Assembly: GCA_900473915.1 (NCBI GenBank)
Contig: UCNG01000011.1
Span: forward strand, 210,544 to 274,543
Direction of reading: 5' to 3'
DNA length: 64,000 nucleotides
Origin: Hyphomicrobiales bacterium
GTDB lineage: Bacteria; Pseudomonadota; Alphaproteobacteria; Rhizobiales; Rhizobiaceae
A program made the translations under genes and the position numbers. Positions 98 to 17,848 of the stretch are shown here, in pieces (within the stretch, counting starts at the first letter, position 1; each line of letters starts with the position of its first letter). Below the pieces are notes generated by a model. It saw only the letters and a program-made list of their open reading frames with translations, ran no database searches and had not been told where the DNA came from.

Positions 98-2911
<2,814 letters not shown>

Positions 2912-2915
2912 CGCG

Positions 2916-3284
2916 TTATCCTACCAGTTTGTCGTAACCGGCCTTGTCGAGGAGACCGGAAAGCTGGCTTTCATCGGAAAGCTTCAGCTTGAACAGCCAG
3001 CCCTCGCCTTCCGCAGCCTGATTGATAAGAGCCGGATCGCTTGCGACGGCTTCGTTGACTTCGACCACTTCGCCATCGACCGGCGCATAAACGTCGGAAG
3101 CGGCCTTGACCGATTCCACAACCACAATGCCCTCGCCCTTGGTTGCCGTGCGGCCGACATCCGGCAGCTCGACGAAAACGAGGTCACCCAGTTGTTCCTG
3201 TGCGTGGATCGTAATGCCGACAGTGGCGACGCCGTTTTCGACGCTGATCCACTCGTGATCTTCGGTGAACAGGATATTGGCCAT
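2916..3284 (-). CDS. gcvH: Glycine cleavage system H protein
   Basis: GcvH is the lipoylated carrier that shuttles the aminomethyl intermediate between GcvP, GcvT and lipoamide dehydrogenase. The 122-residue product has the biotinyl/lipoyl fold, with the lipoyl-lysine at about K60 in ESVKA. I chose the ATG at 3284 (MANILF) because it has an AGGA motif at fair spacing. An upstream ATG at 3293 overlaps the gcvT stop codon and would add only three residues. The gene sits between gcvT and gcvP with almost no spacing, so the three genes are probably translationally coupled. Confidence 0.97.
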
Positions 3285-3289
3285 GGAAA

Positions 3290-4393
3290 TCATCCTTTGC
3301 GATAGCGATGCGGTGTGAAGGGAAGCGCCGAAACGTCTACGGGAACCTTGTTGCCGCGAACGTCAGCGAAAACGCGTGTGCCGGGGGCAGCGAGGCTTGC
3401 CTCGACATAGCCCATCGCGACAGGAAAACCTGCCGATGGACCAAAACCACCCGAAGTAACGGTGCCGATCTGGCGACCGGATTCATCAAAAAGGTCAGCG
3501 CCTGCGCGGACCGGCTGGCGGCCTTCCGGCTTCAGGCCAACGCGCTTGGCAGATGCGCCCTTGGCGATTGCATCCAGGACGGCCTTTGCACCGTTGAACG
3601 TCGCCTTTTCGCGCACAGGCTTGGTGATCGCCCAGGTAAGACCAGCCGAAACGGGGTCTGTCTCCGGGGTAATGTCCTGGCCGTGGAGGCAAAGCCCGGC
3701 TTCAAGGCGCAAGGAATCGCGGGCGGCAAGGCCGATCCATTCGACGCGTTCATCGGCAAGAAGCTTTTCGGCCAGCGCGCGCGCCTCTTCGGCAGGCAGG
3801 CCGATCTCGAAACCGTCTTCGCCGGTATATCCCGAACGGGTCATGAACCAGCCCTGCTTCGGCTCAAAACCGTTCATGAAGGCAAGATCTGCGCCCGGCA
3901 GCCCCGCATCGGTGACGACTGCTTCGGCTTCTGGTCCTTGCAATGCGAGGAAAACACGGTCGAGAGGATTGACCTTCACGTCCTTGCCCGACGCCGCTTC
4001 ATTCAGATGTTCGATATCGGCATCGGCATTGCCCGCATTGGCGACGACCATGAAGCGGTCTTCACCAAGACGCGTGACGATCAAATCGTCCAGCACGCCG
4101 CCATTATCATTGAGGAAGAAAGTATATTTCGACTGACCCGTCTTCAGGATCGTCGGATCGAGCGGGCAGGTCTCGGCCAGAAGTGCGGCGGCATCTGCGC
4201 CCGAAACTTCGATCAGTTTCATATGAGAAATGTCGAAAAGGCCGACATGTTCACGCGTATGAAGATGTTCCTTCATGACGCCCAGCGGATAGGTGATCGG
4301 CATGTTCCAGCCAGCAAAGCCGCCAAAGCGCGCGCCAGCCTTTTCATGCATGTCCTGCAAAGGCAGGGTCTTCAGATGTGCGGTATCGCCCAT
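3290..4393 (-). CDS. gcvT: Glycine cleavage system T protein (aminomethyltransferase)
   Basis: GcvT moves the methylene group from aminomethyl-lipoyl GcvH to tetrahydrofolate and releases ammonia. The 367-residue product is full length for the family and has the N-terminal GcvT folate-binding domain (motifs such as GLFDISHM and YTGEDGFE) and the C-terminal barrel domain. I chose the ATG at 4393, which has GGAG six bases upstream; an in-frame start 33 bases further up lacks one. It is the first gene of gcvTHP, directly behind a tandem glycine riboswitch. Confidence 0.97.
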
Positions 4394-4439
4394 AACAACT
4401 CCAGAGTCGCACGTGTGCCTCCGCAAAATGCGGTTGCTT

Positions 4440-5466: not shown

Positions 5467-5856
5467 TTACCGCGCGGCGACGACCTCGATCTCGACTTTG
5501 AATTCCTCGCGCGTGAAACCGGAAACGATCATCAGCGTGGAAGCGGGCGCTGGCGCTGGAAACAGCCTGTCGCGCACGTCCATATATGGCCGCATGTGAG
5601 CGCGATCCGTCACGTAGGTGTTGATGCGCACTACATCGGCAAGGTCCATGCCGCCGTCACGCAGGATGCGCCGGATATTCTCAAAGCAAAGCTCCGCCTG
5701 CGCCCCCGCATCCTGCGGAACATTGCCATCTGGCGCGATGCCCAGCTGGCCAGAGCAGAAGATCATTTCCGCACCAGTCTTTACTTTCACACCATGGCTA
5801 TAGGCGGCAAAGGGAGCCGCCATATCCTGCGGCAGCAGATGTTTCAAAGTGCTCAT
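5467..5856 (-). CDS. Rid-family protein (YjgF/YER057c/UK114), lacking the deaminase arginine
   Basis: The 129-residue product has the Rid fold (motif IFCSGQLG; C-terminal FKVEIEVVAA). Archetypal RidA deaminates reactive enamines and uses an arginine in a PARS-type motif near residue 105. Here that segment reads PASTL, with serine at about position 106, so imine/enamine deaminase activity is doubtful and the protein fits Rid subfamilies outside RidA. It lies nine bases after the FAD reductase gene in an apparent two-gene operon, divergent from the creatininase operon. RutC of the Rut pyrimidine pathway is also a Rid protein, which makes the context suggestive. Confidence 0.9.
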   Translation of the reverse strand: MSTLKHLLPQDMAAPFAAYSHGVKVKTGAEMIFCSGQLGIAPDGNVPQDAGAQAELCFENIRRILRDGGMDLADVVRINTYVTDRAHMRPYMDVRDRLFPAPAPASTLMIVSGFTREEFKVEIEVVAAR

Positions 5857-5865
5857 CGTATATCC

Positions 5866-7098
5866 TCAAGTTTTCGGCGCAGCAGCCAGCATTTCTTTCA
5901 GCCGTGTTGCCCCAGCGGCAATATCAGCCTCGGTCGGATTGATCCCTGCCGCCAGCAGGCGGCGCGCGATCATATGATCCGCCGGGCGATTGATGGAATC
6001 GACAGCCACAAGCCTGTCACCGGCGAAATGAAAGATGGAGAACGCATTTTCTTCCGGGTTCCCGGAAAGCACATGCCGATCAGCATCGAAGGACAGGCCT
6101 GCGGTCTGCAACTTCATATCGCCCTGATCGGACCAGAACCAGGCAATCTCTCGAAATGGCGTTTCGCGTCCGACAATGGTGCGCGCCACATGCTTTGCCT
6201 GGTCTGTCGCATTCTGCACCGATTCAAGTCGCACCCGACGGCCGGCGTGAAAATGATCGTAGCTCACGCAATCGCCAATTGCGTAGACATGGCTCGCGGA
6301 CGTGCACAGATTCCCATCCACTACAATGCCGTTGTCGATTGCAAGCCCGGCTGTTACTGCAAGCTCCACGTTTGGCACCGCGCCCGTGCCGATCACAACC
6401 ATATCCGCCGGAAATATAGTTCCGTCCGCAGCTTTAACGCCTGTCACGCGGCCATTTTCACCCTCAATCGCCATCACGCCGAGATTGGTCAAAACCGTGA
6501 TACTGGCGGCGCGGCTGCGCGCTTCCACATGGGCGGAGATGTGCGTCGCCACCGAGCGCCCCAGCACGCGAGGCGCAGCCTCGATCAGAACTGTCTTTTT
6601 GCCAAGCGCGATTGCGCTATGAGCCATTTCGAGGCCGATGAAACCGCCGCCGATAATAACCACATTCTCAACATTGGGCATCGCCGCCGCAATGCGGCGT
6701 GCATCTTCCATCCGGCGCAGCGTGAAAACACCGTCAAGCTCGACACCCGGCACATCGGGAATGCGGGCACGCGCACCGGTCGCGAAGATCAATTCGGACC
6801 AGTTCAGGACCTGCCCGTCATCGAGCGTGACCGTCTTGTCTGCAAGAGATACGCCATCGACGCGACGGCCAAACATCATCTCGATATTATTGTCGCGGTA
6901 GGCCGACTCTGGACGCAGAACCAGCCCTCCACCTTCGGGCGCCTTCAGGTAGGACTTGGACAGCGGTGGCTTGTGGTAGGGAATATCGGTTTCGTCGTTG
7001 ATGAGAATGATTTCGCCTGCATAGCCTTCCTGCCGAAGGCTGATCGCGGCCTGCGAGCCAGCATGACCAGCTCCAATGATAATGCATCTATCGTCCAT
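5866..7098 (-). CDS. FAD-dependent ferredoxin/rubredoxin reductase-type oxidoreductase
   Basis: The 410-residue product has the two-dinucleotide-fold layout of oxygenase-coupled ferredoxin reductases (BphA4/PdR type). There is an N-terminal FAD site (GAGHAG, residues about 7-12), a central NAD site (IIGGGFIGLE) and the FAD-contacting YAIGDC motif, then a reductase C-terminal domain. Such enzymes pass electrons from NADH to a ferredoxin serving a monooxygenase or dioxygenase. No ferredoxin or oxygenase gene lies next to it, so the partner is not known. It is transcribed with the Rid gene and divergently from the creatininase operon. Confidence 0.9.
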   Translation of the reverse strand: MDDRCIIIGAGHAGSQAAISLRQEGYAGEIILINDETDIPYHKPPLSKSYLKAPEGGGLVLRPESAYRDNNIEMMFGRRVDGVSLADKTVTLDDGQVLNWSELIFATGARARIPDVPGVELDGVFTLRRMEDARRIAAAMPNVENVVIIGGGFIGLEMAHSAIALGKKTVLIEAAPRVLGRSVATHISAHVEARSRAASITVLTNLGVMAIEGENGRVTGVKAADGTIFPADMVVIGTGAVPNVELAVTAGLAIDNGIVVDGNLCTSASHVYAIGDCVSYDHFHAGRRVRLESVQNATDQAKHVARTIVGRETPFREIAWFWSDQGDMKLQTAGLSFDADRHVLSGNPEENAFSIFHFAGDRLVAVDSINRPADHMIARRLLAAGINPTEADIAAGATRLKEMLAAAPKT

Positions 7099-7211
7099 AG
7101 GACCTCCGGAAATTTCCGCACATCATAAACCTGTCGCGGCCCGTCACGTGACCAATTAGCCACGGATTCACACCTTAATTGCACGCAATTTGAATATTTA
7201 AAACATTTAGT

Positions 7212-7227
7212 TTGACCGATCGGTCAG
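7212..7227. promoter_or_regulatory. Candidate RutR-type operator
   Basis: The site reads TTGACCGATCGGTCAG and contains the perfect 14-bp palindrome TGACCGATCGGTCA at 7213-7226. The published E. coli RutR consensus is TTGACC, four bases, GGTCAA, so the match fails only at the last base. It lies between the divergent FAD reductase and creatininase genes, and TTGACC could double as a -35 box with TAGTAG 16 bases on. A RutR-like TetR gene ends the plus-strand operon at 14076, so it is the likely binder. This is inference from motif and context. Confidence 0.72.
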
Positions 7228-7252
7228 ATTGTTTAGTAGGATGCGCTAAATC

Positions 7253-7318
7253 TGGTTTGACGCGCATCTTGTTCCGAAAGCCGTTTCACACTTTTCGGGA
7301 TGCGCTCTAACGCCCTTG
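7253..7318 (+). repeat. Rhizobiales-type intergenic repeat
   Basis: The segment holds GCGCATCTTGTTCCGAAA, CCGTTTCACACTTTTCGG and GATGCGCTCT. Its outer parts (GCGCATC/GATGCGC) and inner parts (CCGAAA/TTTCGG) are inverted repeats. From memory, near-identical strings recur between genes in Brucella, Ochrobactrum and other Rhizobiales. It lies between the candidate operator and the creatininase start, so it would be part of the 5' leader if the promoter is at the operator. Confidence 0.6.
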
Positions 7319-7343
7319 GCCCGAGCGTGTAGGAGTTGCAGTC

Positions 7344-8144
7344 TTGAAACGATATTGGTCCGATTATACGAGCGAGGCATTCTCCCGCCTTGAGCGTGAA
7401 AAGCTCGTGGCAGTTCTGCCCGTTGGCGCGATCGAACAGCACGGGCCTCACCTGCCGCTGGCAGTTGATGCCGCCATTGTCGATGGCATGGTGAAAGAAA
7501 CAATCGCCCGCCTGCCGGAATCCAGCCATGCGCTGTTCCTCCCCACGCAGGCCATTGGCAAGAGCAACGAGCACAGCCTTTACCCAGGCACACTGACGTT
7601 CTCGGCAGAGACGATCATTCGCATGTGGTGTGAGATAGGCGGCTGCGTGGCAGCAAGCGGTGTCCGCAAGATGGCGCTTCTCAACAGTCATGGCGGCCAG
7701 ATTAGTGTCATGGATATCGTAGCACGCGAGCTGCGCATCCGTCACAACATGATGGTGGTCAGCATCAACTGGTTCGGCCTTGGAATGCCCGAAGGCGTTT
7801 ACAGCGAGCACGATCTGAAGCACGGCATCCATGCAGGCGACATGGAAACCTCAGTGATGCTGGAAATGCATCCCGATCTGGTCGACATGTCGAAAGCGCA
7901 GGATTTCCGCACCCTTACTGAAAAGTTCGCAAGCGATTTCAAACACCTGTCGCTGAGCGGCGGCGCCAAGCCCGCCTGGCAGATTCAGGATATCAATTCT
8001 CACGGCGCAGCAGGCGACGCAACGCTTGCAACCGCTGAAAAAGGCCGCAAGACCATCGATTTTGCCGCTGGCCGGCTAGTCGAGGTATTGATGGAAATCG
8101 AACGAGCGCCGCTCGCCTGGCTCGATAACAAGCCAGGCTGGTAG
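7344..8144 (+). CDS. Creatininase-family amidohydrolase
   Basis: The creatininase family contains metal-dependent hydrolases of cyclic or linear amides such as creatinine and formamidopyrimidines. The 266-residue product has the ligand set E31, H33 and D42 (GAIEQHG...VDAA), spaced as in creatininase itself, plus the SHGG loop and a later metal-binding glutamate in HAGDMETS. The start is TTG 7344, with AGGAG eight bases upstream. It opens an operon that continues with an ABC importer, a cytosine-deaminase-like enzyme and an FAD oxidase. Ring opening of an imported N-heterocycle is a reasonable guess, but the substrate is unknown. Confidence 0.9.
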   Translation: MKRYWSDYTSEAFSRLEREKLVAVLPVGAIEQHGPHLPLAVDAAIVDGMVKETIARLPESSHALFLPTQAIGKSNEHSLYPGTLTFSAETIIRMWCEIGGCVAASGVRKMALLNSHGGQISVMDIVARELRIRHNMMVVSINWFGLGMPEGVYSEHDLKHGIHAGDMETSVMLEMHPDLVDMSKAQDFRTLTEKFASDFKHLSLSGGAKPAWQIQDINSHGAAGDATLATAEKGRKTIDFAAGRLVEVLMEIERAPLAWLDNKPGW

Positions 8145-8153
8145 GAAAGGACA

Positions 8154-8960
8154 ATGAGCGTGGCCCCCGACTCCTCCCCTTCCTCCCTCATCGAAATAAA
8201 CCGCGTCTACAAGCAGTATGGCACCGGCGTCATGGCCGTGAGCGACATGTCGCTCAGAATTGAGCAAGGCCAGTTCGTAAGCTTTCTCGGCCCCTCGGGA
8301 TGCGGCAAAAGCACGGCGCTGCGCATGATAGCGGGACTGGAATCCATTTCCGCTGGCGAAATCCACATCAACGGCCACACCCCCGGCAAAGGCCCGATTG
8401 GCGCGCAGGATATCGGTTTCGTGTTTCAGGAACCGACCCTGATGCCTTGGGCGAACGTCTTCGACAATGTCTATCTGCCACTCCGTCTTTCCGGCATATC
8501 GCGCAAGCAAGCAACGCCACGCGTCGAAGAAGTGCTGGCACAGGTCGGTCTTTCACGTTTTGCCAAGGCATTCCCGCGTGAGCTTTCCGGCGGCATGAAA
8601 ATGCGTGTTTCCATTGCTCGCGCGCTGGTTACACGGCCGCGCCTTCTCCTGATGGACGAGCCTTTTGCAGCGCTTGACGAGATGACGCGTTTCAAGCTCA
8701 ACAATGATGTGCTGCGTCTTTGGCAAGAGCACGGCCTGACGGTGATCTTCGTCACCCACAGCGTTTATGAGTCGGTCTATCTGTCCAACCGCGTCATCGT
8801 CATGGCGGCAAGGCCGGGGCGCGTGGTCGCCGATATACCGATCATCGGCACCTATCCCCGTGCAGAAAGCTACCGCACGACAGAAGCATATGCAAAATAT
8901 TGCGCCAAGGTTTCTGATGCGCTGACCGCGACGCTTTCCTCTGAAGATATAGATCACTGA
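8154..8960 (+). CDS. ABC transporter ATP-binding protein (SsuB/TauB/ThiZ type)
   Basis: This is the cytosolic ATPase of an importer. The 268 residues include Walker A (GPSGCGKST), the Q-loop, signature LSGGMKMR, Walker B (LLLMDEPFAALD) and the switch histidine in FVTHS. The sequence groups with the nitrate/sulfonate/taurine and thiamine-precursor importer ATPases, which pair with NMT1/THI5-like binding proteins; such a protein is encoded at 12389. It follows the creatininase gene by nine bases. Confidence 0.93.
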   Translation: MSVAPDSSPSSLIEINRVYKQYGTGVMAVSDMSLRIEQGQFVSFLGPSGCGKSTALRMIAGLESISAGEIHINGHTPGKGPIGAQDIGFVFQEPTLMPWANVFDNVYLPLRLSGISRKQATPRVEEVLAQVGLSRFAKAFPRELSGGMKMRVSIARALVTRPRLLLMDEPFAALDEMTRFKLNNDVLRLWQEHGLTVIFVTHSVYESVYLSNRVIVMAARPGRVVADIPIIGTYPRAESYRTTEAYAKYCAKVSDALTATLSSEDIDH

Positions 8961-8964
8961 GGAC

Positions 8965-9813
8965 ATGCAAATGAACCAGATGCAAAACGAACTGCCTGTC
9001 CTCAATTCCGAACAGGACCGCCTTGCCAGGCGCGAGCGCACCTTGCGCATCCTCATGCCCACCGCGGCCATCCTCATCGCACTCGGCATTTGGGAAAGTC
9101 TCGTCCGTTACTATCAGATACCTCACTATCTGATCCCAGCCCCTTCGCTGGTTGCGGAAACGCTCGTCAAGGATGGCCCGTCGCTGATGGCGTCCCTGTG
9201 GTTCACGGTAAAGCTGACACTCATCTCGCTTGCCTGCGCCATCGTCGGCGGCGTACTGCTTGGCATGGTCTTCGCCTTGTCGCGCCCGATAGAAATGGCG
9301 TTTTTTCCTTTCGCCGTCATACTTCAGGTGACACCGGTGATCGCCATCGCACCGCTGATCCTGATCTATGTGCGTGATACCTTCTCCGCCCTTCTGATCT
9401 GCGCGTGGATCGTCGCCTTCTTCCCTATCCTTTCCAATACGGTGATCGGGCTTCGCAGTGCCGATCATAACCTGCGCGACCTGTTCAAGCTCTACCGTGC
9501 CTCGCCATGGCAGCGGCTGCGCTATCTGCTGGCGCCGAGCGCATTGCCCTATTTCATGGCGGCACTGAAAATCGCCGGTGGCCTGTCGTTGATCGGTGCG
9601 GTTGTCGCCGAATTTGTCGCCGGTACAGCAGGCCAAAGCACCGGCCTTGCCTCACGCATTCTGGAATCGAGCTTCCGCAACGAAATTCCGCGAATGTTTG
9701 CTGCACTTTTTCTCGTGTCGCTGCTGGGCATCGTGATCTTCCTCATCACAAGCTGGCTGTCGCGCCTTGTCCTCGGACGCTGGCACGAAAGCGAAATTCG
9801 CCGGGAACGCTGA
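8965..9813 (+). CDS. ABC transporter permease (SsuC/TauC/ThiX type)
   Basis: This inner-membrane permease of 282 residues has about six hydrophobic segments and the BPD_transp_1 domain, with the ATPase-contacting EAA-like loop around residues 160-185. It starts four bases after the ATPase gene and ends one base before the amidohydrolase start, so the genes are tightly coupled. Together with the ATPase at 8154 and the binding protein at 12389 it forms a complete importer. Confidence 0.93.
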   Translation: MQMNQMQNELPVLNSEQDRLARRERTLRILMPTAAILIALGIWESLVRYYQIPHYLIPAPSLVAETLVKDGPSLMASLWFTVKLTLISLACAIVGGVLLGMVFALSRPIEMAFFPFAVILQVTPVIAIAPLILIYVRDTFSALLICAWIVAFFPILSNTVIGLRSADHNLRDLFKLYRASPWQRLRYLLAPSALPYFMAALKIAGGLSLIGAVVAEFVAGTAGQSTGLASRILESSFRNEIPRMFAALFLVSLLGIVIFLITSWLSRLVLGRWHESEIRRER

Positions 9814-9814
9814 C

Positions 9815-10996
9815 ATGCTGAGCGGCGTTGCCATAACCGGGCTTTCCGGCCGTCACGATATTCATATCGAGGGGAACCGCATTGCCTCGATCACGCCGTC
9901 CCGCGCAACTGGCGGCGGACTGGTGACGCCGCTTTTCGCCGATGTGCATGTGCATCTCGACAAGACATTCACCATGCCGCGCATTGCGCAAAACGGTCCG
10001 GCAAAGGTGGAATGTCTGTTCGACGCCATCGATCTGATGAATGCCGACCGGCAGAACTGGACCGCGGATGATATTCGCGCCCGCGCAAGCAAAGGGCTTG
10101 AGACAGCCTTTGCGCAAGGGGTCGGCGCGATGCGCAGTCACGTGGACTGGATTGCACCGGAAACGCCGACGGCATGGCCTGTTCTGAACGAATTGCGCGA
10201 GGAATGGAAAGGCCGGATCGATCTTCAGCTTGCCGCCCTTGTCCATGGCGATCTCGTGCTGGAAGCTGGCAAGTCGATTGCTGCCCGCGTGGCGCAGGAT
10301 AATGGCGTGCTTGGCGCATTCTTCTATCGCAATCCCGATCTCGAAGCGAAGATCGCGGAGATGTTCCGGCTTGCGACTGCACACGGGCTCGATCTCGACT
10401 TTCATGTTGATGAAGGCCTGGATATTGAAGCCAACGGCTTCTCCCTGATCGTCGATGCAACCCGCCGCCATTCCATGGGCGGGAAAGTGCTGTGCGGTCA
10501 CGCCTGTTCGCTGTCCTTGCGCGGGCCCGACGAGCTTCCACGCATTCTCGATGCCGCAGCAGAAGCGGGCGTCGCGCTCGTCGCGCTGCCCACGACGAAC
10601 CTTTATCTGCAAGACCGGCTTGGCGGAAAATCGCCGCGAATGCGCGGCGTAGCGCCGCTGAAAGAGGCACGCGCTGCGGGCATGGATGTCATGATCGGCT
10701 CCGACAATGTGCGCGACGCCTTTTACCCCTATGGCGATTACGATCCGCTGGCGATCCTGCGTCTTGCGGCACCCGTCTGCCATCTTGAGCCCCAGGAATG
10801 GCTGGACAGCATCACCACCCTGCCTGCTCGCCTCATCAAAAGCGAGCGCGTGCAAGTACCCAAAGCCGGTGCGCCCGCAAATTTCATCTGGCACGACGCC
10901 GAAGACCTCAACGACCTCATCAGCCGTCCGCAGGCCCCGCGCACCATCTGGCGCGACGGTGTCGCCTCGCCCCAAAACAACGGGAGAACCCCATGA
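9815..10996 (+). CDS. Cytosine-deaminase-like amidohydrolase
   Basis: The 393-residue product belongs to the metal-dependent amidohydrolase superfamily, on the cytosine deaminase (CodA) branch. It has the HxH metal motif at H45/H47 inside VHVHLDKTF, then HVDEGLD, CGHACSL and the late aspartate in GSDN, all typical of that branch. CodA-type enzymes deaminate cytosine, isocytosine, creatinine or related rings, so the natural substrate cannot be read from motifs. ATG 9815 is preferred over an in-frame start at 9767, because the latter would overlap the permease gene by 47 bases. Its stop codon overlaps the next start (ATGA). Confidence 0.88.
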   Translation: MLSGVAITGLSGRHDIHIEGNRIASITPSRATGGGLVTPLFADVHVHLDKTFTMPRIAQNGPAKVECLFDAIDLMNADRQNWTADDIRARASKGLETAFAQGVGAMRSHVDWIAPETPTAWPVLNELREEWKGRIDLQLAALVHGDLVLEAGKSIAARVAQDNGVLGAFFYRNPDLEAKIAEMFRLATAHGLDLDFHVDEGLDIEANGFSLIVDATRRHSMGGKVLCGHACSLSLRGPDELPRILDAAAEAGVALVALPTTNLYLQDRLGGKSPRMRGVAPLKEARAAGMDVMIGSDNVRDAFYPYGDYDPLAILRLAAPVCHLEPQEWLDSITTLPARLIKSERVQVPKAGAPANFIWHDAEDLNDLISRPQAPRTIWRDGVASPQNNGRTP

Positions 10997-12372
10997 ATTC
11001 TGCCGCTCCGCAGCGCATTTACGACTGGGCCGCATTCCGCGCCGAAATCGATGGAATCCGCATCTATGACGACCCGAAGCAGGTCGAGCTGCGCTCACGC
11101 GATTATTTCTGGTACAGCCCCATCCTGACCGAAGATATCGGCCAATATGTTGGCGATCTCGTGGTCATCCCGAAAGATCAGGACGAAGTGCGCCGCGTGG
11201 CGGCGGCTGCCGCGAAACTCCGCATCCCCATCACCGTGCGCGGCGGCGGCACCGGCAATTACGGCCAATGCGTCCCGCTGGAGGGTGGCATCATCCTCGA
11301 CATGACCAAGCTCGACCGTATCATTTCCATCGAACCCGGCAAGGTTCGCGTGGAAGGCGGCGCGCGCATTTCGCGCCTTGACGATGCTGTGCGCGAGACC
11401 GGACAGGAACTTCTCATGTATCCGTCCACCCGCCGCATCGCCACGATTGGAGGCTTTTTCTCCGGCGGTTCCGGCGGCATCGGTTCGCTGCGCCACGGCA
11501 TGTTGCGCGACGACGGCAACGTCTATTCGGTCAAGGTTCTGACCGTCGAACCGGAACCGAAAATCATCGAATTGACTGGCCGCGACATCCACAAGGTCCA
11601 GCACGCCTATGGCACCAACGGCATCATTCTGGAGCTGGAAATCGGGCTGACCAAATCGACCGACTGGATACATACCGCTGCCTTGTTCGACAGTTACGAG
11701 GCAGCGCTCAACTTCTGCCTCAAGGCGCTGGAAGAAAATCTGGACTGCTATCTGCTGACCACCGTTGATCGTCGCTTCGCGCGTTTCTACACCAAGTTCG
11801 GCGAGCTCTTCCCTTCCGACAAGGATGCGGTTTTCGCCATGATCGCGCCGGAGGAAATGGCCCGTTTCGAGGCGCTCGCCACCGAATTTGGCGGTAAGCT
11901 ATCCTTCGCCATGACACTGGATGAATTGCACAAGAACGGCCTGCAGCCTGCCTATGAATGTGGCTGGAACCACACCACCTTGCAGGCGCTGAAAGCTGAG
12001 GAAGGCTGGACCTATCTGCAGGTTGCCTATCCGCGTCCATTCGATGTTGATGTGGTGACGCGCCAGATCGAACGCTACGGCGAGACGCAATATATGCATC
12101 ACGAAATGGCACGTCTGGAAGGCGAAGTGCAGATTTTCGCCCTGCCGCTTGTCCGCTTTGAAGGTCGGGACGAGATGTATCGCCTGATCAAGGAACTGGA
12201 GCAGGTTGACGGCTGCGACATCTACGATCCTCATGCCTACACCATTGAGGATGGCGGCATGAAGGAGATCGACAGCGTCCAGATCGAGTTCAAGAAACTC
12301 GCTGACCCGTATGGCCTGCTCAATCCGGGTAAGACGCGCGGCTGGACCGCCGACATGGCTTTGACTGATTAA
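10993..12372 (+). CDS. FAD-binding oxidase, GlcD/VAO-type
   Basis: The 459-residue product has the PCMH-type FAD-binding fold (VRGGGTGNYGQ near residue 80, then GGFFSGGSGGIGS) and the FAD-linked oxidase C-terminal region ending in LLNPGKTRGW. Enzymes of this group oxidise hydroxy acids, alcohols or amines. ATG 10993 overlaps the previous stop codon. Upstream in-frame starts lie inside the amidohydrolase gene and are rejected. The substrate is probably a product of the two hydrolases encoded upstream; this is inference. Confidence 0.88.
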   Translation: MNSAAPQRIYDWAAFRAEIDGIRIYDDPKQVELRSRDYFWYSPILTEDIGQYVGDLVVIPKDQDEVRRVAAAAAKLRIPITVRGGGTGNYGQCVPLEGGIILDMTKLDRIISIEPGKVRVEGGARISRLDDAVRETGQELLMYPSTRRIATIGGFFSGGSGGIGSLRHGMLRDDGNVYSVKVLTVEPEPKIIELTGRDIHKVQHAYGTNGIILELEIGLTKSTDWIHTAALFDSYEAALNFCLKALEENLDCYLLTTVDRRFARFYTKFGELFPSDKDAVFAMIAPEEMARFEALATEFGGKLSFAMTLDELHKNGLQPAYECGWNHTTLQALKAEEGWTYLQVAYPRPFDVDVVTRQIERYGETQYMHHEMARLEGEVQIFALPLVRFEGRDEMYRLIKELEQVDGCDIYDPHAYTIEDGGMKEIDSVQIEFKKLADPYGLLNPGKTRGWTADMALTD

Positions 12373-12388
12373 AACAAGGGGAACCAAT

Positions 12389-13399
12389 ATGAAAAAAAAT
12401 CTGATTGCAGCGCTGGCCGCGCTTTCCATGGGCCTTTCCGCACAAATGGCCTATGCGCTCGACAAGGTGACGCTTGGCACCAACTGGCTGGCGCAAGCCG
12501 GTCACGGTGGCTTCTATCAAGCCGTTGCCGATGGCACCTATGAGAAATACGGGCTCGATGTGCAGATAGAAATGGGCGGACCGCAGGTCAACAATCGCCC
12601 GATGCTTGCCGCAGGCCGTCTCGACTTCCTGCTGGCGGGCAATCTCCTTCTTTCCTTCAACAATGTGGCCAATGGCGTGCCTACCACGGTTGTCGCCGGC
12701 TTCTACCAGAAAGACCCGCAGGCGTTGATGGTCCATGAAGGTGAATACAAGGACTTCAAGGATCTGACCAATGCCGAAACGATCCTGCTTTCGAAGGATG
12801 CGCAATTCTCATTCTGGCCGTGGCTGGTGAAGGAATTTGGCTTCAAGGAAGAACAGCTTCGCCCCTATGGCTACAGCCTGGCACAGTTTCTGAACGACAA
12901 GAAGGTGGTGCAGCAGGCCTATGCCACCGCGGAACCGCTCTACGCCGAAAAGGAAGGGGCAAAGGTCACGACCTATCTTCTGGCCGATTATGGCTACAGC
13001 ACCTATGGCAACACCATCGAAACGCGTCAGGAGCTGATCGAGAAGAACCCCGATCTGGTGCAGCGCTTCGTCAGCGCTTCTATTGAGGGCTGGACGAATT
13101 TCCTCTATGGCGACCACACCAAAGCTTATGAGTTGATCCTGAAAGACAATCCGGACATGAGCAAGGAAACGCTGGATGCCGAGCTTGCTCGCATCAAGGA
13201 GTTGCAGCTCATCGACAGTGGCGACGCAGCCGAGAAAGGCATCGGCGCCATTGATATGAACCGCGTGAAGGCATTCTACGAACTCGCGCGCAAGGCAGGC
13301 ATCGTCAGCGGTGACGAACTCGACATGAGCAAAGTCGCGACGGATGCCTTTGTGAACAAGGGCGTGGGCCTCGACATCAAGAAGAAGCTCGGCCAATAA
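12389..13399 (+). CDS. ABC transporter substrate-binding protein, NMT1/THI5-like
   Basis: The 336-residue product has a signal peptide (cleavage likely after MAYA, about residue 24) and the NMT1/THI5-like fold (LGTNWLAQAGHGGFYQA). Family members bind pyrimidine precursors (ThiY), sulfonates, nitrate or riboflavin. The ThiY-like opening hints at a pyrimidine-like ligand and agrees with the RutR-like regulator encoded next. It has a clear AAGGGGAA ribosome-binding site and lies 16 bases after the oxidase gene. Confidence 0.92.
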   Translation: MKKNLIAALAALSMGLSAQMAYALDKVTLGTNWLAQAGHGGFYQAVADGTYEKYGLDVQIEMGGPQVNNRPMLAAGRLDFLLAGNLLLSFNNVANGVPTTVVAGFYQKDPQALMVHEGEYKDFKDLTNAETILLSKDAQFSFWPWLVKEFGFKEEQLRPYGYSLAQFLNDKKVVQQAYATAEPLYAEKEGAKVTTYLLADYGYSTYGNTIETRQELIEKNPDLVQRFVSASIEGWTNFLYGDHTKAYELILKDNPDMSKETLDAELARIKELQLIDSGDAAEKGIGAIDMNRVKAFYELARKAGIVSGDELDMSKVATDAFVNKGVGLDIKKKLGQ

Positions 13400-13425
13400 G
13401 CCATCTCCAATCGCGGCAGGCACGG

Positions 13426-14076
13426 ATGAACAACGACGAGAATGATAACACGGAGCCAACCGGACGAGACAAGGTTCTCGACCGCAGGCGGCGCATTCTC
13501 GGCGCAATCCGCGCCGCCGCGATTGATGAATTCGCTGAAAAGGGCCTTGCGGGGGCTTCCACGCAAGGCATTGCGCAACGGGCAGGCCTGACCAAGCCGC
13601 AATTGCATTACTATATTTCGAGCAAGGAAGAACTTTACGAGGACATCATCGTATATATCCTCGACGAATGGGAAGAGATATTCCTCGGCGCCAATACCGA
13701 AAACGACCCTGCCAGGGTGATCCGTCAATATATCCGCGCCAAGCTCGAATATAGCCAGAAGAACCCCAAGGCTTCGCGCCTTTTCACTACCGAAATTGCC
13801 AATGGTGCGCCTTATCTCGGACGCCACTGGGCCAAGCATCAGTCTGCGACTCAGAATGCCGTCCGCCTCATCCAGTCCTGGGTAGATGACGGTCGTATCA
13901 AGCCCGTCGATCCGCTACTGTTCCAGATGCATATATGGGCAGTCACTCAGCATTATGCCGATTTCGAAGCGCAGGTTCGCAGCATGATGAAACTCGACAA
14001 GGACGAACCGCTCGACCTTGAACGGATCGAGAAGGAAGTCTCAACGCTGTTTCTGCGGGCCTGCGGGCTGGAATAA
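13426..14076 (+). CDS. TetR/AcrR-family regulator, RutR-like
   Basis: The 216-residue product has an N-terminal TetR helix-turn-helix (about residues 23-70, with QGIAQRAGLTKPQLHYYIS) and a C-terminal ligand domain resembling the YcdC/RutR type. RutR of E. coli represses pyrimidine breakdown and is released by uracil or thymine. Here the gene closes the creatininase/ABC operon, and a matching palindrome sits at 7212. I infer that it autoregulates the operon in response to a pyrimidine-like compound and may also control the divergent Rid/reductase pair. Confidence 0.87.
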   Translation: MNNDENDNTEPTGRDKVLDRRRRILGAIRAAAIDEFAEKGLAGASTQGIAQRAGLTKPQLHYYISSKEELYEDIIVYILDEWEEIFLGANTENDPARVIRQYIRAKLEYSQKNPKASRLFTTEIANGAPYLGRHWAKHQSATQNAVRLIQSWVDDGRIKPVDPLLFQMHIWAVTQHYADFEAQVRSMMKLDKDEPLDLERIEKEVSTLFLRACGLE

Positions 14077-14096: not shown

Positions 14097-14927
14097 TCAG
14101 CGCAAATCTTCAAGTTCGGCAATGCGGGCGGCGCTGTCCTTTTCCAGCATTCGGGTCATTTCGCGAATGACCGTTTCTGCCAAAACAAAAAGTGCAGCCG
14201 ATGAATCCCACGCGGACGGCACGGCTGTGCGCCCTGCCAGAACATGACGGGCCACGCGCGCTATCGGCGAAAGCCACTGGTCGGTAACAAGAACGACCTC
14301 CACGCCTCTGGCCCGTGCCTTCTCGGCCAGTTTCAAAAGACTGTCCTGATAACGGCGAATATCGAAAACCACCAGAACATCGCGCTTTCCCATATCGAGA
14401 AGACGATCGCGCCAGACGCTCTCCTGCCCGCCAAGATGAAAGACATGCGGACGAATGACAGTCATATGCGCCGCCATATATTGCGCAATGGGATCGGTGA
14501 AGCGCCCGCCTATCAGATAGACATTGCCCTTTGCTTCACTCAAAGCTGACACGGCTTGCCGCAACTGCCTTTCGCCGAGATGCCGGAAACTCTCGCGGAT
14601 ATTTTCCAGCGTATGCTCCACCGCCGGATAGGCCGCGTCCGGCCCGCCGCCGGGCAGTTCATTGCGATGGTGCGGCGATTGCAATTGCGCCGCAAGTTCG
14701 TCCTGCAATCGCGCCTGAAAATCAGGATAGTTCTGGAACCCGAGCCTGTTTACGAAGCGCAGGATCGTCGGGGAGCTGACACCAGCCAGGGCGGAAAATT
14801 CCGCAACGGTTTTCAAACCCAGCATCGGATAATTGGCGATCAATGTCTGGGCTGCACTTCGCTCGCCCGCTGGCATCGTATCAATCCGCTCATTGATCAG
14901 TTCCGCAACGCTCGCATGCACAGGCAC
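14097..14927 (-). CDS. MurR/RpiR-family transcriptional regulator
   Basis: The 276-residue product has an N-terminal RpiR helix-turn-helix domain (about residues 5-80; VAEFSALAGVSSPTILRFVN) and a C-terminal SIS domain (VYLIGGRFTDPIAQYMA) that usually senses a small metabolite. It is divergent from the N-formylglutamate-amidohydrolase/TRAP/glutamine-synthetase operon at 15069-22975 and is its likely regulator. Two direct repeats lie in the shared promoter region. Confidence 0.92.
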   Translation of the reverse strand: MPVHASVAELINERIDTMPAGERSAAQTLIANYPMLGLKTVAEFSALAGVSSPTILRFVNRLGFQNYPDFQARLQDELAAQLQSPHHRNELPGGGPDAAYPAVEHTLENIRESFRHLGERQLRQAVSALSEAKGNVYLIGGRFTDPIAQYMAAHMTVIRPHVFHLGGQESVWRDRLLDMGKRDVLVVFDIRRYQDSLLKLAEKARARGVEVVLVTDQWLSPIARVARHVLAGRTAVPSAWDSSAALFVLAETVIREMTRMLEKDSAARIAELEDLR

Positions 14928-15068: not shown

Positions 15069-15863
15069 ATGACGGACGAGCGAGAATATCGCACGGTTTC
15101 GTGCGAGCCTGTTTCTGTCTTCAACAAGGATGGGGAAAGCCCCTATCTCTTTGTCTGCGAACACGCATCCAATTTCATTCCTGAGTCTTTCCAGGGGCTC
15201 GGCCTTGATGCCGAGGCATTGCGCGCGCATATCGCGTGGGACCCCGGCGCTGTGGAAGTCGCAAGACATCTCGCTACTTCCCTCGACGCACCTCTTGTCG
15301 AAAGCCAGCTTTCTCGACTGCTGATCGATTGCAATCGTCCACTCGATGCTCCCGACCTCATTCCGGAAATCAGCGAGACGACCGTGGTTCTCGGAAATCA
15401 CGCGCTCAGTTCCATGGAACGTCTGGCGCGCATCGATCTTTCACACCGTCCATTCCACACCGCTGTCGAACAGGTCATGGCGGAGCGTGCGCAACGCGGA
15501 CTACCGTCCTGGATCGTGACGGTCCATTCCTTCACCCCCGTTTATCGCGATGTGCCCCGGCCCTGGCAGATCGGCATCATCCACGATGAAGACGACCGGA
15601 TTGGCATGCCCCTGATCGCTGCCCTGCGCAAAGACGATACCCTGCATGTGGGCGTGAACGAGCCCTATTCGCCCGCTGACCGCGTCTACTACACGCTGGA
15701 GCGGCATGCACGTCCGCGCAATGCGCCCTGCGTGATGATCGAAATCCGCAACAATGAAATCGCCAATAGCCGGACACAGACGCTCTGGGCCGAAAGGCTT
15801 GCAGAAATTTTGAAGGAAATTGCGAAAACAATTGGTCCGCATACCACGGAACAGAAAGCCTGA
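15069..15863 (+). CDS. N-formylglutamate amidohydrolase-family enzyme (HutG-like)
   Basis: The 264-residue product matches the N-formylglutamate amidohydrolase family (motifs VCEHASNFIP, LIDCNRP, VHSFTP, HARPRNAPCVMIEIRN). Known members cleave N-formyl-L-glutamate to glutamate and formate in histidine breakdown. No hut gene is near. Instead it precedes a TRAP transporter, a PuuA-type glutamine synthetase and two dehydrogenases, so it may hydrolyse a glutamyl amide at the end of that pathway. This alternative role is inference. Confidence 0.9.
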   Translation: MTDEREYRTVSCEPVSVFNKDGESPYLFVCEHASNFIPESFQGLGLDAEALRAHIAWDPGAVEVARHLATSLDAPLVESQLSRLLIDCNRPLDAPDLIPEISETTVVLGNHALSSMERLARIDLSHRPFHTAVEQVMAERAQRGLPSWIVTVHSFTPVYRDVPRPWQIGIIHDEDDRIGMPLIAALRKDDTLHVGVNEPYSPADRVYYTLERHARPRNAPCVMIEIRNNEIANSRTQTLWAERLAEILKEIAKTIGPHTTEQKA

Positions 15864-15874
15864 GGGAGCCGGAA

Positions 15875-16426
15875 ATGCCGAAGCCAATCAGACTGTTCGT
15901 CAAATATGTTGATGCGCTGAATTATTATATCGGGCGCTTCGCGATGTATCTTCTATTCGTGCTGGGCGCCTGCCTTCTCTATTCCACCTTTTCGCGCGTG
16001 GTGCTGGGCATCCCGGTGAACTGGGTGCTGGAAATGTCCCAGTTTTTGCTTTCCGCCTATTACCTGCTCGGCGGCGCTTATGCCATGCAGCAAGGCGCGC
16101 ATGTGCGCATGGATCTGTTCTTCGACCGTCTCCCGCCCCGCAGGAAAATGATCACCGATATGATCACCATCCTGTTCATCATCTTCTATCTTGGCGTGAT
16201 GGTTGCGGGTGGAATTTCATCGACCAATTACGCCATCGTTTACAACCAGACGAACTATACTGCCTGGGCACCACTTCTCTGGCCGATCAAGCTCATCATG
16301 ACGGTCGGCATTTTCCTGCTGCTGCTCCAATGCGTCTCCAATTTCTTCAAGGACTGGGCCTCCCTGCGTGGAAAGCCGATCAGCACCATTGCGGGTCCTG
16401 CCATTGAGGAAGGGCATCACATATGA
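15875..16426 (+). CDS. TRAP transporter small permease, DctQ family
   Basis: The 183-residue inner-membrane protein has four hydrophobic segments and the DctQ layout, with NWVLEMSQ between segments 1 and 2. With the large permease (overlapping ATGA start at 16423) and the binding protein at 17849 it forms a sodium- or proton-coupled uptake system for an organic acid or zwitterion. It has a GGAG ribosome-binding site. Confidence 0.93.
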   Translation: MPKPIRLFVKYVDALNYYIGRFAMYLLFVLGACLLYSTFSRVVLGIPVNWVLEMSQFLLSAYYLLGGAYAMQQGAHVRMDLFFDRLPPRRKMITDMITILFIIFYLGVMVAGGISSTNYAIVYNQTNYTAWAPLLWPIKLIMTVGIFLLLLQCVSNFFKDWASLRGKPISTIAGPAIEEGHHI

Positions 16427-17748
16427 GCTCGGAATTCATTACGCTCTTCATGTTCGCAACCATGATGGTGCTGCTCATGACCGGGCAGCGCGTCTTCGGC
16501 GTGATCGGGTTTGTGGGCTCCCTCGCAGCACTGCTGCTCTGGGGCAAGGGCTCGTTCGAGATGCCGTACAATGCCACCTTTGCGGTATTGAACTGGTATC
16601 CGCTTATCACCGTGCCGTTCTTCGTGTTCATGGGCTACATGCTCTCGGAATCGGGCATTGCCAGCAATCTTTATCGCATGTTCCATGTCTGGTTCGGCGG
16701 CATTCGCGGCGGTCTGGCTCTGGGAACAATCGGCCTGATGGTCATCATTTCCTGCATGAACGGCCTCAGCGTCGCAGGCATGGCCATCGGCGCAACCGTG
16801 GCGATGCCGGAGCTTCTCAAGCGCCGCTACAACAAGGTCATGGTCACAGGCGTCATTCAGGCAGGCAGTTCGCTCGGCATCCTGATCCCGCCCAGCGTCG
16901 TGCTGGTGCTTTATGCGATGATTGCCCGGCAGCCGGTTTTGCAGTTGTGGCTCGCAGGCATCGGCCCCGGCCTTCTCATGGCCGCGCTCTTCGCGATCTA
17001 TATCTATATTCGCTGCCGCATCCAACCCGAACTGGGCCCGACACTGCCCCAGGAGGAACTGGATAAAATTACATGGCGCGATCGGTTCGTCACCTTGCGT
17101 GCCGGCATATTGCCGCTCGTGGTTTTCGGCGCGATGATGGGCCTGTTCCTCACCGGCGTTACCAGCCTTGTCGAAAGCTCTGCCGTCGGCGCACTTCTTG
17201 CAACGCTGGCCGCGCTTTTTACCGGACGCCTCAACAAGGCCGTCTGGGAAACCACGACACGCAACAGTCTCACCGTCACCTGCATGTTCCTCTGGATTAT
17301 TCTGGCGGCGCTCTGTTTCTCGTCGGTCTATGACGGTCTCGGTGCAGTGAAAGCCATCGAGAGCGTGTTGCTCAACACCTTCGATCTGTCACCATGGACC
17401 ATCCTGGTATTGATGCTGTTTTCTTTCATCATACTGGGCATGTTTCTTGACGATACAGCGATGCTGGTGATCGTGGCGCCACTCTATATACCGCTGGTCA
17501 AGAGCCTCGGCTTCAACGCTATCTGGTTCGGCGTCCTCTACACCATCACCTGCCAGATCGCATATATCACGCCGCCTTTCGGATACAATCTCTTCATGAT
17601 GCGGGCCTTGGCACCGAAGGAAGTCACGCTGATAGACATCTATCGCTCAATCGTGCCGTTCTTCTTCCTCATGGTGCTGACGATCATCATCCTGATGATC
17701 TTTCCGCAGATCGCGATGTGGCTGCCGAATTGGTACAGCGGACGGTGA
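16423..17748 (+). CDS. TRAP transporter large permease, DctM family
   Basis: The 441-residue product has about a dozen hydrophobic segments and DctM signatures such as IQAGSSLGILIPPSVVLVLY and the C-terminal TPPFGYNLF. It forms the transport channel together with DctQ. It overlaps the dctQ stop by four bases, which indicates translational coupling. Confidence 0.94.
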   Translation: MSSEFITLFMFATMMVLLMTGQRVFGVIGFVGSLAALLLWGKGSFEMPYNATFAVLNWYPLITVPFFVFMGYMLSESGIASNLYRMFHVWFGGIRGGLALGTIGLMVIISCMNGLSVAGMAIGATVAMPELLKRRYNKVMVTGVIQAGSSLGILIPPSVVLVLYAMIARQPVLQLWLAGIGPGLLMAALFAIYIYIRCRIQPELGPTLPQEELDKITWRDRFVTLRAGILPLVVFGAMMGLFLTGVTSLVESSAVGALLATLAALFTGRLNKAVWETTTRNSLTVTCMFLWIILAALCFSSVYDGLGAVKAIESVLLNTFDLSPWTILVLMLFSFIILGMFLDDTAMLVIVAPLYIPLVKSLGFNAIWFGVLYTITCQIAYITPPFGYNLFMMRALAPKEVTLIDIYRSIVPFFFLMVLTIIILMIFPQIAMWLPNWYSGR

Positions 17749-17848
17749 CGACACGCACAGGAGAATGCGCATAAGCCGGTGACAAGAGCCCAAAGGGCCG
17801 GACCGGAATAATTAAAGGGTGAACTCAAACAAGAGTGGGAGAATGGGC

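What the first reader, a model, noticed from the sequence alone, without database searches (positions are those of the whole stretch)
5467..14076. Possible undescribed N-heterocycle (pyrimidine-like) catabolic locus under a RutR-type switch
A RutR-like TetR gene, a perfect RutR-type palindrome at 7212-7227 and an NMT1/THI5-like ABC importer all point to a pyrimidine-like signal and substrate. The enzymes (creatininase-like, cytosine-deaminase-like, GlcD-type FAD oxidase, and divergently a Rid protein and ferredoxin-type reductase) do not match the known Rut, reductive or Pyd pathways; RutA and RutB are absent. A plausible order is import, deamination, ring opening by the creatininase homologue, then flavin oxidation.
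Basis: partly seen in the sequence, partly recalled or inferred. Interest (0 to 1): 0.75.

Follow-up and report, generated by a model that had tools for sequence, protein, structure and literature searches.

The report
Uncharacterised heterocycle-degrading operon with RutR-like switch
A conserved set of genes, found in scattered soil, sea and plant-associated bacteria, looks built to import and break down a nitrogen-ring compound whose identity is still unknown, and here it is switched by a cousin of the uracil sensor RutR.

Summary
5467-14076 holds a packed seven-gene operon (creatininase-superfamily hydrolase, NMT1-type ABC importer, CodA-related amidohydrolase, FAD oxidoreductase, RutR-like TetR) and divergent ferredoxin-reductase and Rid genes around a 14-bp palindrome. 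Of 64 genome loci with full flanks around the FAD gene, 51 hold both hydrolases. The TetR proteins form one group beside RutR. The window protein keeps all five uracil contacts of E. coli RutR, but relatives outside the cluster largely keep them too. A good RutR-type site precedes 22 of 39 TetR-type clusters and 0 of 15 with a LysR hit. Corrections: the CodA-like enzyme lacks cytosine-contact residues, the creatininase-like one its second-metal Glu, the Rid its catalytic Arg. Since 33 of 38 host genomes searched carry PreA or RutA, it is hardly just another uracil route. Ureide hydrolases beside the module in 3 of 112 loci fit ring catabolism. Substrate unknown. A deaminase-like and FAD pair of R. 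leguminosarum, most likely the orthologues, is listed as pea-specific in bacteroids. New variant of a known kind.

The parts
5467..5856 (-). Rid-family protein (PF01042) without the catalytic Arg of RidA (Ser in its place)
5866..7098 (-). NADH-ferredoxin-reductase-like flavoprotein (Pyr_redox_2 + Reductase_C; closest NCBIfam models HcaD and AndAa, below their cut-offs)
7213..7226 (.). 14-bp perfect palindrome TGACCGATCGGTCA, RutR-type operator, in the 245-bp divergent spacer
7344..8144 (+). creatininase-superfamily hydrolase (PF02633), TTG start with AGGAG at 7331-7335; first-metal ligands kept, second-metal Glu lost
8154..8960 (+). ABC importer ATPase
8965..9813 (+). ABC importer permease (BPD_transp_1)
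9815..10996 (+). amidohydrolase related to cytosine deaminase CodA (below the cut-off of NF005759); catalytic metal site intact, cytosine contacts changed
10993..12372 (+). FAD_binding_4 oxidoreductase, same family as PDB 6v42/6v43
12389..13399 (+). NMT1/THI5-like periplasmic binding protein
13426..14076 (+). RutR-like TetR regulator (TetR_C_3), of a group beside RutR

Best explanation
The locus is a catabolic operon for an imported small nitrogen heterocycle that bears a ring amino group. SHOWN: gene order and conservation; an intact amidohydrolase metal site; loss of the residues that contact cytosine in CodA and creatinine in creatininase; a RutR-like regulator of its own group with an operator, conserved in the close relatives, between the two divergent units. 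INFERRED: the binding protein, permease and ATPase import the compound; the CodA-like enzyme removes an amino group to give a uracil- or hydantoin-like imide; that imide, or a close relative, releases the RutR-like repressor from the site at 7213-7226 and opens both divergent units; the creatininase-superfamily enzyme hydrolyses a C-N bond (ring or ureide); the FAD enzyme makes a two-electron oxidation, coupled to or supported by an NAD(P)H redox partner (here ferredoxin reductase, elsewhere a flavodoxin-type or VanB-type reductase); the Rid protein handles an unstable enamine or ureide by a chemistry other than RidA's. Substrate and order of steps are open; hydantoin-type, ring-oxidised pyrimidine, pterin-type or thiamine-pyrimidine compounds all fit.
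For: Conserved as a unit: of 80 genome loci picked by the FAD gene, 64 have at least 5.5 kb on both sides, and of these 56 hold the CodA-like gene, 58 the creatininase-like gene, 51 both, 55-56 each ABC gene and 55 at least one of three kinds of reductase. A second sample, from evenly drawn genomes (overlap with the first not excluded), gave AH 10, creatininase-like 9 and any ABC gene 11 of 13 fully flanked places. Prevalence is low and patchy: 19 of 385 Alphaproteobacteria with G001 itself counted, 2 of 321 in the class of G022 with G022 itself counted. Amidohydrolase: His61, His63, His214, His246 and Asp313 of CodA kept in 28 of 28 aligned, Glu217 in 26 of 28. Regulator: 43 cluster regulators on one side of a branch with support 100/99, apart from 30 RutR-like genes of the same genomes plus E. 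coli RutR; Trp77, Trp167 and Gln171 kept in 42, 43 and 42 of 43, all five contacts in 26 of 43. Operator: score 10/12 or more before 22 of 39 TetR-type clusters, 0 of 15 with a LysR hit, 1 of 17 with neither; the strict pattern occurs only once in genomes G001 and G002, both times beside the cluster. Neighbours in relatives: AtzE amidase (696 bits, cut-off 461) and HpxZ (169, cut-off 135) in L198; a RutB/biuret-hydrolase-like isochorismatase in L198, L204 and L194; weak ureidoglycolate-lyase-like and PuuE-like genes in L204; an 8-oxoguanine-deaminase-family gene (L087 copy 663 bits, cut-off 532) in L068, L078 and L087, with a weaker one in L058.
Against: No enzyme activity, ligand or growth phenotype is shown. 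Trp77, Tyr97, Trp167 and Gln171 are kept also in 4 of 5 TetR_C_3 regions with no other core gene. Three fully flanked places of the second sample (L193, L199, L207) have neither hydrolase, and 13 of 64 in the first lack one or both. The ureide hydrolases are in only 3 of 112 loci searched. The operator score is no better than shuffles in most Rhodobacterales clusters. The strict pattern as such is not enriched over its reversed control in the 15 genomes. 9 of 64 fully flanked loci show none of the three kinds of reductase. Rid lacks the Arg needed for imine hydrolysis. FAD proteins of this class often oxidise 2-hydroxy acids (recalled), so the true substrate could be an open-chain acid.
Confidence: 0.5

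Rival explanations
1. A second route for ordinary uracil/cytosine: a Rut analogue in which the FAD enzyme with its reductase replaces RutA/RutF, the creatininase-like enzyme RutB, and Rid RutC.
For: RutR-like regulator and operator; a reductase near the FAD gene in 55 of 64 fully flanked loci; a Rid-family gene in 35 of 64.
Against: 33 of 38 host genomes searched (38 of the 80 loci) hold PreA (29) or RutA (8) over cut-off, 4 both; genomes G001-G025 hold two to five TetR_C_3 genes each, so a RutR beside the cluster's regulator; CodA's Gln156 lost in 28 of 28 and Asp314 is Asn in 28 of 28; Rid lacks the catalytic Arg (13 of 13 aligned). Left open: five genomes have neither PreA nor RutA over cut-off (G022, G023, G025, G035, G036).
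Confidence: 0.12
2. Oxidative ureide/hydantoin route: the module turns an amino-imidazolone or hydantoin-type compound, or an oxidised purine product, into ureido acids such as oxalurate or ureidoglycolate; the FAD enzyme oxidises the 2-hydroxy acid or hydroxy-ring, as its GlcD-like fold suggests.
For: AtzE, HpxZ (oxalurate catabolism) and biuret/RutB-type hydrolase inside the cluster of L198, ureidoglycolate-lyase-like and PuuE-like genes in L204; glyoxylate/hydroxypyruvate-reductase-like gene near 9 of 80 loci; after 6v42, the FAD enzyme's closest named relatives are GlcD and D-lactate dehydrogenase.
Against: Ureide genes in only 3 of 112 loci; creatininase residues Glu122 and Trp174 lost in 77 of 77; 2-hydroxyacid dehydrogenases are common genes and may be bystanders; the PuuE-like gene is far below its cut-off.
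Confidence: 0.18
3. Catabolism of the thiamine pyrimidine (HMP) or its amino form: deamination of C4, oxidation of the 5-hydroxymethyl by the FAD enzyme, then hydrolysis.
For: The binding protein's only solved relatives at E<=0.001 are chain 4nmy (named only as a solute-binding protein; that it is ThiY-like is recalled) and yeast THI5; loss of the Gln that reads cytosine O2 fits a ring with 2-methyl (inference).
Against: The matches are weak (E 5e-6 and 1e-4); no thiamine gene is named among the annotated neighbours of the 12 plasmid loci first read, though none was searched for; ureide hydrolases beside the module in relatives do not fit.
Confidence: 0.1
4. Not a heterocycle at all: the importer takes an organic acid or sulfonate and the hydrolases act on open-chain amides; RutR-likeness is only ancestry.
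For: NMT1 importers serve many substrates (recalled); the creatininase superfamily includes non-cyclic amide hydrolases such as MftE (best NCBIfam hit, below cut-off); the main uracil contacts are a family trait; tetronate-type genes flank some clusters (11 of 80).
Against: A CodA-type gene in 56 of 64 fully flanked loci, its metal site intact in 28 of 28 aligned; 8-oxoguanine/isocytosine-deaminase-family and ureide genes in some relatives.
Confidence: 0.1

Closest known systems
RutR and the Rut pyrimidine operon
   Same: TetR_C_3 regulator with the uracil-contact residues, TTGACC-N4-GGTCA site, Rid-fold protein and reductase in the unit
   Different: regulator is of a separate group; no RutA over cut-off in the close relatives G001-G009 and G024; importer is ABC not RutG; enzymes of other families; Rid without catalytic Arg
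Cytosine deaminase CodA / NF005759 'cytosine deaminase'
   Same: CodA-type amidohydrolase sequence and metal site (PDB 1k6w, E 4e-30)
   Different: Gln156, Asp314 and Trp319 replaced; 347.5 bits against a cut-off of 403
Creatininase (PF02633, PDB 1q3k, 1j2t)
   Same: Glu34, His36, His120, His178 in 77 of 77 and Asp45 in 76 of 77
   Different: Glu122 is Gly and Trp174 is lost in 77 of 77; 87 bits against the creatininase cut-off of 235
PDB 6v42/6v43 'FAD/FMN-containing dehydrogenase'
   Same: same family as the FAD gene over nearly its whole length (640 bits to the profile of 8 members)
   Different: no function in the molecule name and no paper found; the tool shows no organism or title
R. leguminosarum RLV_169/RLV_170
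   Same: deaminase-like and FAD-dehydrogenase pair, most likely of the LysR-type Rhizobium version
   Different: LysR instead of RutR-like regulator; FAD about 41-44% identical to the window's

Membership tests
RutR (TIGR03613 / NF011584) | score over the curated cut-off | tested here: not met
   146.3 against 368 bits and 123.4 against 230
RutR (TIGR03613 / NF011584) | uracil contacts Trp77, Tyr97, Trp167, Gln171, Gln179 | tested here: met
   5 of 5 in the window protein, all five in 26 of 43 cluster regulators (contacts from a passage of PMC10891134); but not specific,
RutR (TIGR03613 / NF011584) | phylogenetic place inside the RutR group | tested here: not met
   43 cluster regulators on one side of a 100/99 branch, 30 RutR-like genes + E. 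coli RutR on the other (midpoint root, long branches flagged by the tool)
RutR regulon | TTGACCN4GGTCAA-type palindrome before the operon | tested here: met
   11 of 12 positions in the window, conserved in close relatives; the consensus is recalled, not read in a call
Rut pathway | RutA oxygenase in the cluster | tested here: not met
   none among the genes of 5467-14076; RutA elsewhere in 8 of 38 host genomes
Reductive pyrimidine pathway | PreA/PreT and dihydropyrimidinase in the cluster | tested here: not met
   not among the genes of 5467-14076; PreA is over cut-off in 29 of 38 host genomes
Cytosine deaminase | cytosine contacts Gln156 and Asp314 (roles recalled) | tested here: not met
   0 of 28 and 0 of 28
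Cytosine deaminase | metal site His61, His63, His214, His246, Asp313 (roles recalled) | tested here: met
   28 of 28 each
Creatininase | second-metal ligand Glu122 and substrate Trp174 (roles recalled) | tested here: not met
   Gly in 77 of 77; His/Tyr/Phe/other in 77 of 77 (77 of 81 hits, the 4 short ones dropped)
RidA imine hydrolase | Arg105 | tested here: not met
   Ser in 13 of 13 aligned and, by motif, in 48 of 50 hits, 2 not matched by the motif; role of Arg from PMC4433059 abstract and passages
Thiamine-pyrimidine (ThiY/THI5) binding proteins | binds HMP-type pyrimidine | not testable with these tools
   only weak sequence kinship; structure prediction was off

The most novel reading that the evidence does not exclude
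A previously undescribed bacterial route for ring-oxidised or amino-substituted pyrimidine/hydantoin compounds (for instance 5-hydroxypyrimidines going to a C2/C3 keto acid such as glyoxylate or tartronate semialdehyde), using an orphan FAD oxidoreductase family, sensed by a RutR sister regulator that has shifted ligand, and used by rhizobia on a host-specific legume metabolite inside pea nodules.
Probability: 0.17. Interest if true: 0.7.

Novelty: new variant of a known kind. Interest (0 to 1): 0.45.

Why it matters
If the reading holds, a whole importer-deaminase-hydrolase-oxidase pathway with an orphan but already solved FAD enzyme family (6v42/6v43) waits for its substrate, the 'cytosine deaminase' label on the Rhizobium and related orthologues is wrong, and a RutR sister group offers a ready ligand-shifted sensor. 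The listing of what are most likely the Rhizobium enzymes as pea-specific in bacteroids would make it a handle on what the plant feeds its symbiont. Against high interest: uncharacterised catabolic clusters are common, and no step is proved.

Tried and rejected
Identity as Rut, reductive Pyd, creatinine or plain cytosine utilisation was tested and set aside. I first thought the Rid gene was a RutC analogue; the missing Arg speaks against that. Sigma-70 promoter and terminator scans of 7000-7450 gave nothing. Uracilylalanines (willardiine) as pea substrate: in the review found, the terms for pea, degradation and Rhizobium gave no relevant passage, so this is only a recalled lead. The R. leguminosarum rhizosphere paper PMC3333776 gave no passage with the tag stem pRL1203, 'cytosine deaminase' or 'creatininase' (that the cluster's old tags begin so is a guess). 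The Bradyrhizobium innA 'cytosine deaminase' (PMC5748692, passages) was not tested for membership in this family. PMC6186785 (outline and Results read) places its isocytosine deaminases with the 8-oxoguanine deaminases, not with CodA. PMC5343134 (passages) says RutR motifs vary by taxon. Literature searches; listings only, unless said otherwise; no paper describing the cluster as a pathway was found by them in that library, which lacks most subscription journals.

Tetronate-type dehydrogenases, a glyoxylate-reductase-like gene, an E1/transketolase-like gene with Lrp, Rieske and 2-oxoglutarate oxygenases, and dimethylglycine-dehydrogenase-like genes flank some clusters. I could not decide which belong to the pathway.

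Known flaws: in the script, for three of the 30 comparison regions (L113, L116, L120) the weaker of two RutR-like genes was the one kept; the 30 are the best TetR_C_3 places, and I did not check each for pyrimidine genes beside it. LysR labels include weak hits (from 22% identity). The first ORF picture was spoiled by antisense frames and replaced.


Full report
What is there. Window 7344-14076 (+) is a packed operon: creatininase-superfamily hydrolase, ABC ATPase, ABC permease, CodA-like amidohydrolase (AH), FAD oxidoreductase, NMT1/THI5-like binding protein, RutR-like TetR; gaps are 26 bp or less or overlaps. Divergently lie a ferredoxin-reductase-like gene (5866-7098) and a Rid gene (5467-5856). 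In the 245-bp spacer is a perfect 14-bp palindrome, 7213-7226. The host is an Ochrobactrum-type Brucella by closest match (FAD 98% to B. pseudintermedia); no whole genome is held, and the species was not settled.

Conservation. Counting genes within 10 kb of FAD by tblastn: of the 64 genome loci with more than 5.5 kb on both sides, AH is in 56, the creatininase-like gene in 58, both in 51, ATPase 56, permease 55, binding protein 55, flavodoxin-type NAD(P)H reductase 35, ferredoxin reductase 13, Rid 35, RutR-like TetR 31, LysR 7. Of the 12 plasmid loci 10 have both hydrolases. In a second sample of evenly drawn genomes (overlap with the first not excluded; only the best few candidates per genome were scored) the FAD family at E<=1e-60 is in 19 of 385 Alphaproteobacteria (G001 counted) and 2 of 321 of the class of G022 (G022 counted); of 13 fully flanked places 9 hold both hydrolases and 3 neither (a second place in G486 was left out). 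So the unit is real, patchy, and wider than Rhizobiales. In Rhodobacter and Tabrizicola (L033-L035) only the three enzymes are left together, which marks them as the core. A reductase of one of three kinds (ferredoxin reductase, flavodoxin-type, or VanB/BenC-like) is near in 55 of the 64 (kinds).

Enzymes. AH keeps the CodA metal site in 28 of 28 aligned (Glu217 in 26) but has lost Gln156 in 28, has Asn for Asp314 in 28 and Phe for Trp319 in 27 (the roles of these residues are recalled); it scores 347.5 bits against 403 for 'cytosine deaminase'. So it is probably an active deaminase of another substrate. The creatininase-like enzyme keeps Glu34, His36, His120 and His178 in 77 of 77 and Asp45 in 76, but Glu122 is Gly and Trp174 is lost in 77 of 77 (77 of 81 hits; roles recalled). 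The FAD enzyme matches PDB 6v42/6v43 over nearly its length (640 bits with the profile of 8 members), otherwise mainly the FAD domain of D-lactate-dehydrogenase-like, GlcD-like and other proteins; a set of His, Glu, Asn and other residues is invariant or nearly so across 31 and 34 sequences. No paper with the two PDB codes is in the library. Rid has Ser where RidA has the catalytic Arg in 13 of 13 aligned, and in 48 of 50 hits by motif; PMC4433059 (abstract and passages) holds that Rid proteins without this Arg appear not to hydrolyse imines.

Switch. The TetR scores far below the RutR cut-offs. The 43 cluster regulators lie on one side of a branch (100/99) from 30 RutR-like genes of the same genomes plus E. 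coli RutR (midpoint root, the tool warns of long branches, and three of the 30 rows are the weaker of two copies). The five uracil contacts given in PMC10891134 (passage) are all kept in the window protein; in the 43 cluster regulators Trp77 42, Tyr97 32, Trp167 43, Gln171 42, Gln179 39, all five 26. Control: of 16 further TetR_C_3 regions (several of them clusters of this kind) 15 keep Trp77, Trp167 and Gln171, and of the 5 with no other core gene within about 3 kb 4 do. The contacts therefore suggest a uracil-like ring but are a family trait. Operator: best match to TTGACCN4GGTCAA in the 300 bp before the creatininase-like gene scores 10 or more of 12 in 22 of 39 TetR-type clusters, 0 of 15 with a LysR hit (some weak) and 1 of 17 with neither (loci with under 150 bp upstream or a reversed creatininase gene were dropped; shuffles kept base counts only). 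In G001 and G002 the strict pattern occurs once in the genome, beside the cluster; over 15 genomes it is not more frequent than the reversed control. Most Rhodobacterales clusters show no such site.

Not just uracil. Of 38 host genomes (38 of the 80 loci were searched), PreA is over its cut-off in 29 and RutA in 8, 4 in both, so 33 have another uracil route; G022, G023, G025, G035 and G036 have neither (completeness is not told). This speaks against a mere duplicate of uracil catabolism.

Hints at substrate. L198 also has AtzE (696 bits, cut-off 461) and HpxZ, the oxalurate-catabolism family (169, cut-off 135), and two genes that look like 2-oxoglutarate/iron oxygenases (kin of the annotated one of L088); L204 has weak ureidoglycolate-lyase-like (48 bits Pfam, cut-off 23; far below the NCBIfam cut-offs) and PuuE-like (110, cut-off 424.6) genes and an amidase (490, cut-off 391). 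An 8-oxoguanine-deaminase-family gene is near L068, L078 and L087 (the L087 copy over its cut-off) and a weaker one near L058. Rieske oxygenases are near 9 of 112 loci. These fit breakdown of a nitrogen ring through ureides but are few.

Expression lead. PMC7950203 (Table 3 in passages) lists RLV_169 'cytosine deaminase like' and RLV_170 'putative FAD-binding dehydrogenase', on pRlvA of R. leguminosarum UPM791, as pea-specific in the comparison of pea and lentil bacteroids. The pRlvA record NZ_CP025507.1 carries the AH-FAD pair of this family at 181237-183961, 93.9% identical in DNA to that of strain 3841. The record has no annotation here, so the link of tag to gene rests on tag adjacency and order. 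This is the LysR-type version, not the window's.

Verdict. A conserved catabolic module for a nitrogen heterocycle, not found described in the searches made, is the best reading (about 0.5); the substrate and the order of steps remain open.

Noticed in passing
window 15069-18916 (+) with 14097-14927 (-): Next to the locus: a 264-aa protein that reads like N-formylglutamate amidohydrolase (recalled resemblance; no NCBIfam hit at 1e-10), a TRAP transporter (DctM 240 bits, below its cut-off of 268; DctP just over its cut-off; small permease from inspection) and an RpiR-type regulator; kept beside the cluster in L008, L009 and L011.
   Followed up: partly
window 98-4426 (-): Glycine cleavage genes gcvP and gcvT over cut-off, with a GcvH-like gene 2916-3293 between (from inspection), 1 kb from the Rid gene.
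   Followed up: partly
L191 (G486), L081: Three FAD-family paralogues in tandem (also two in L051, L058, L064, L083, L085, L194), often with a Rieske oxygenase near: family expansion within one cluster.
   Followed up: partly
L131 (G019) and L139 (G025): Further RutR-like TetR genes beside creatininase-like genes (38-40% to the window's), with AH in one and reductase and binding protein in the other: paralogous clusters in Variovorax genomes.
   Followed up: no
L002, L003, L004, L026, L029: An 800-aa E1/transketolase-like gene lies beside the cluster in these loci, with an Lrp regulator in all but L029.
   Followed up: partly
L003 (NZ_CP084754.1): A cluster like the alphaproteobacterial ones on a plasmid of a record named Roseateles sp. 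XES5, flagged UNVERIFIED_ORG: transfer or mislabelled record.
   Followed up: no
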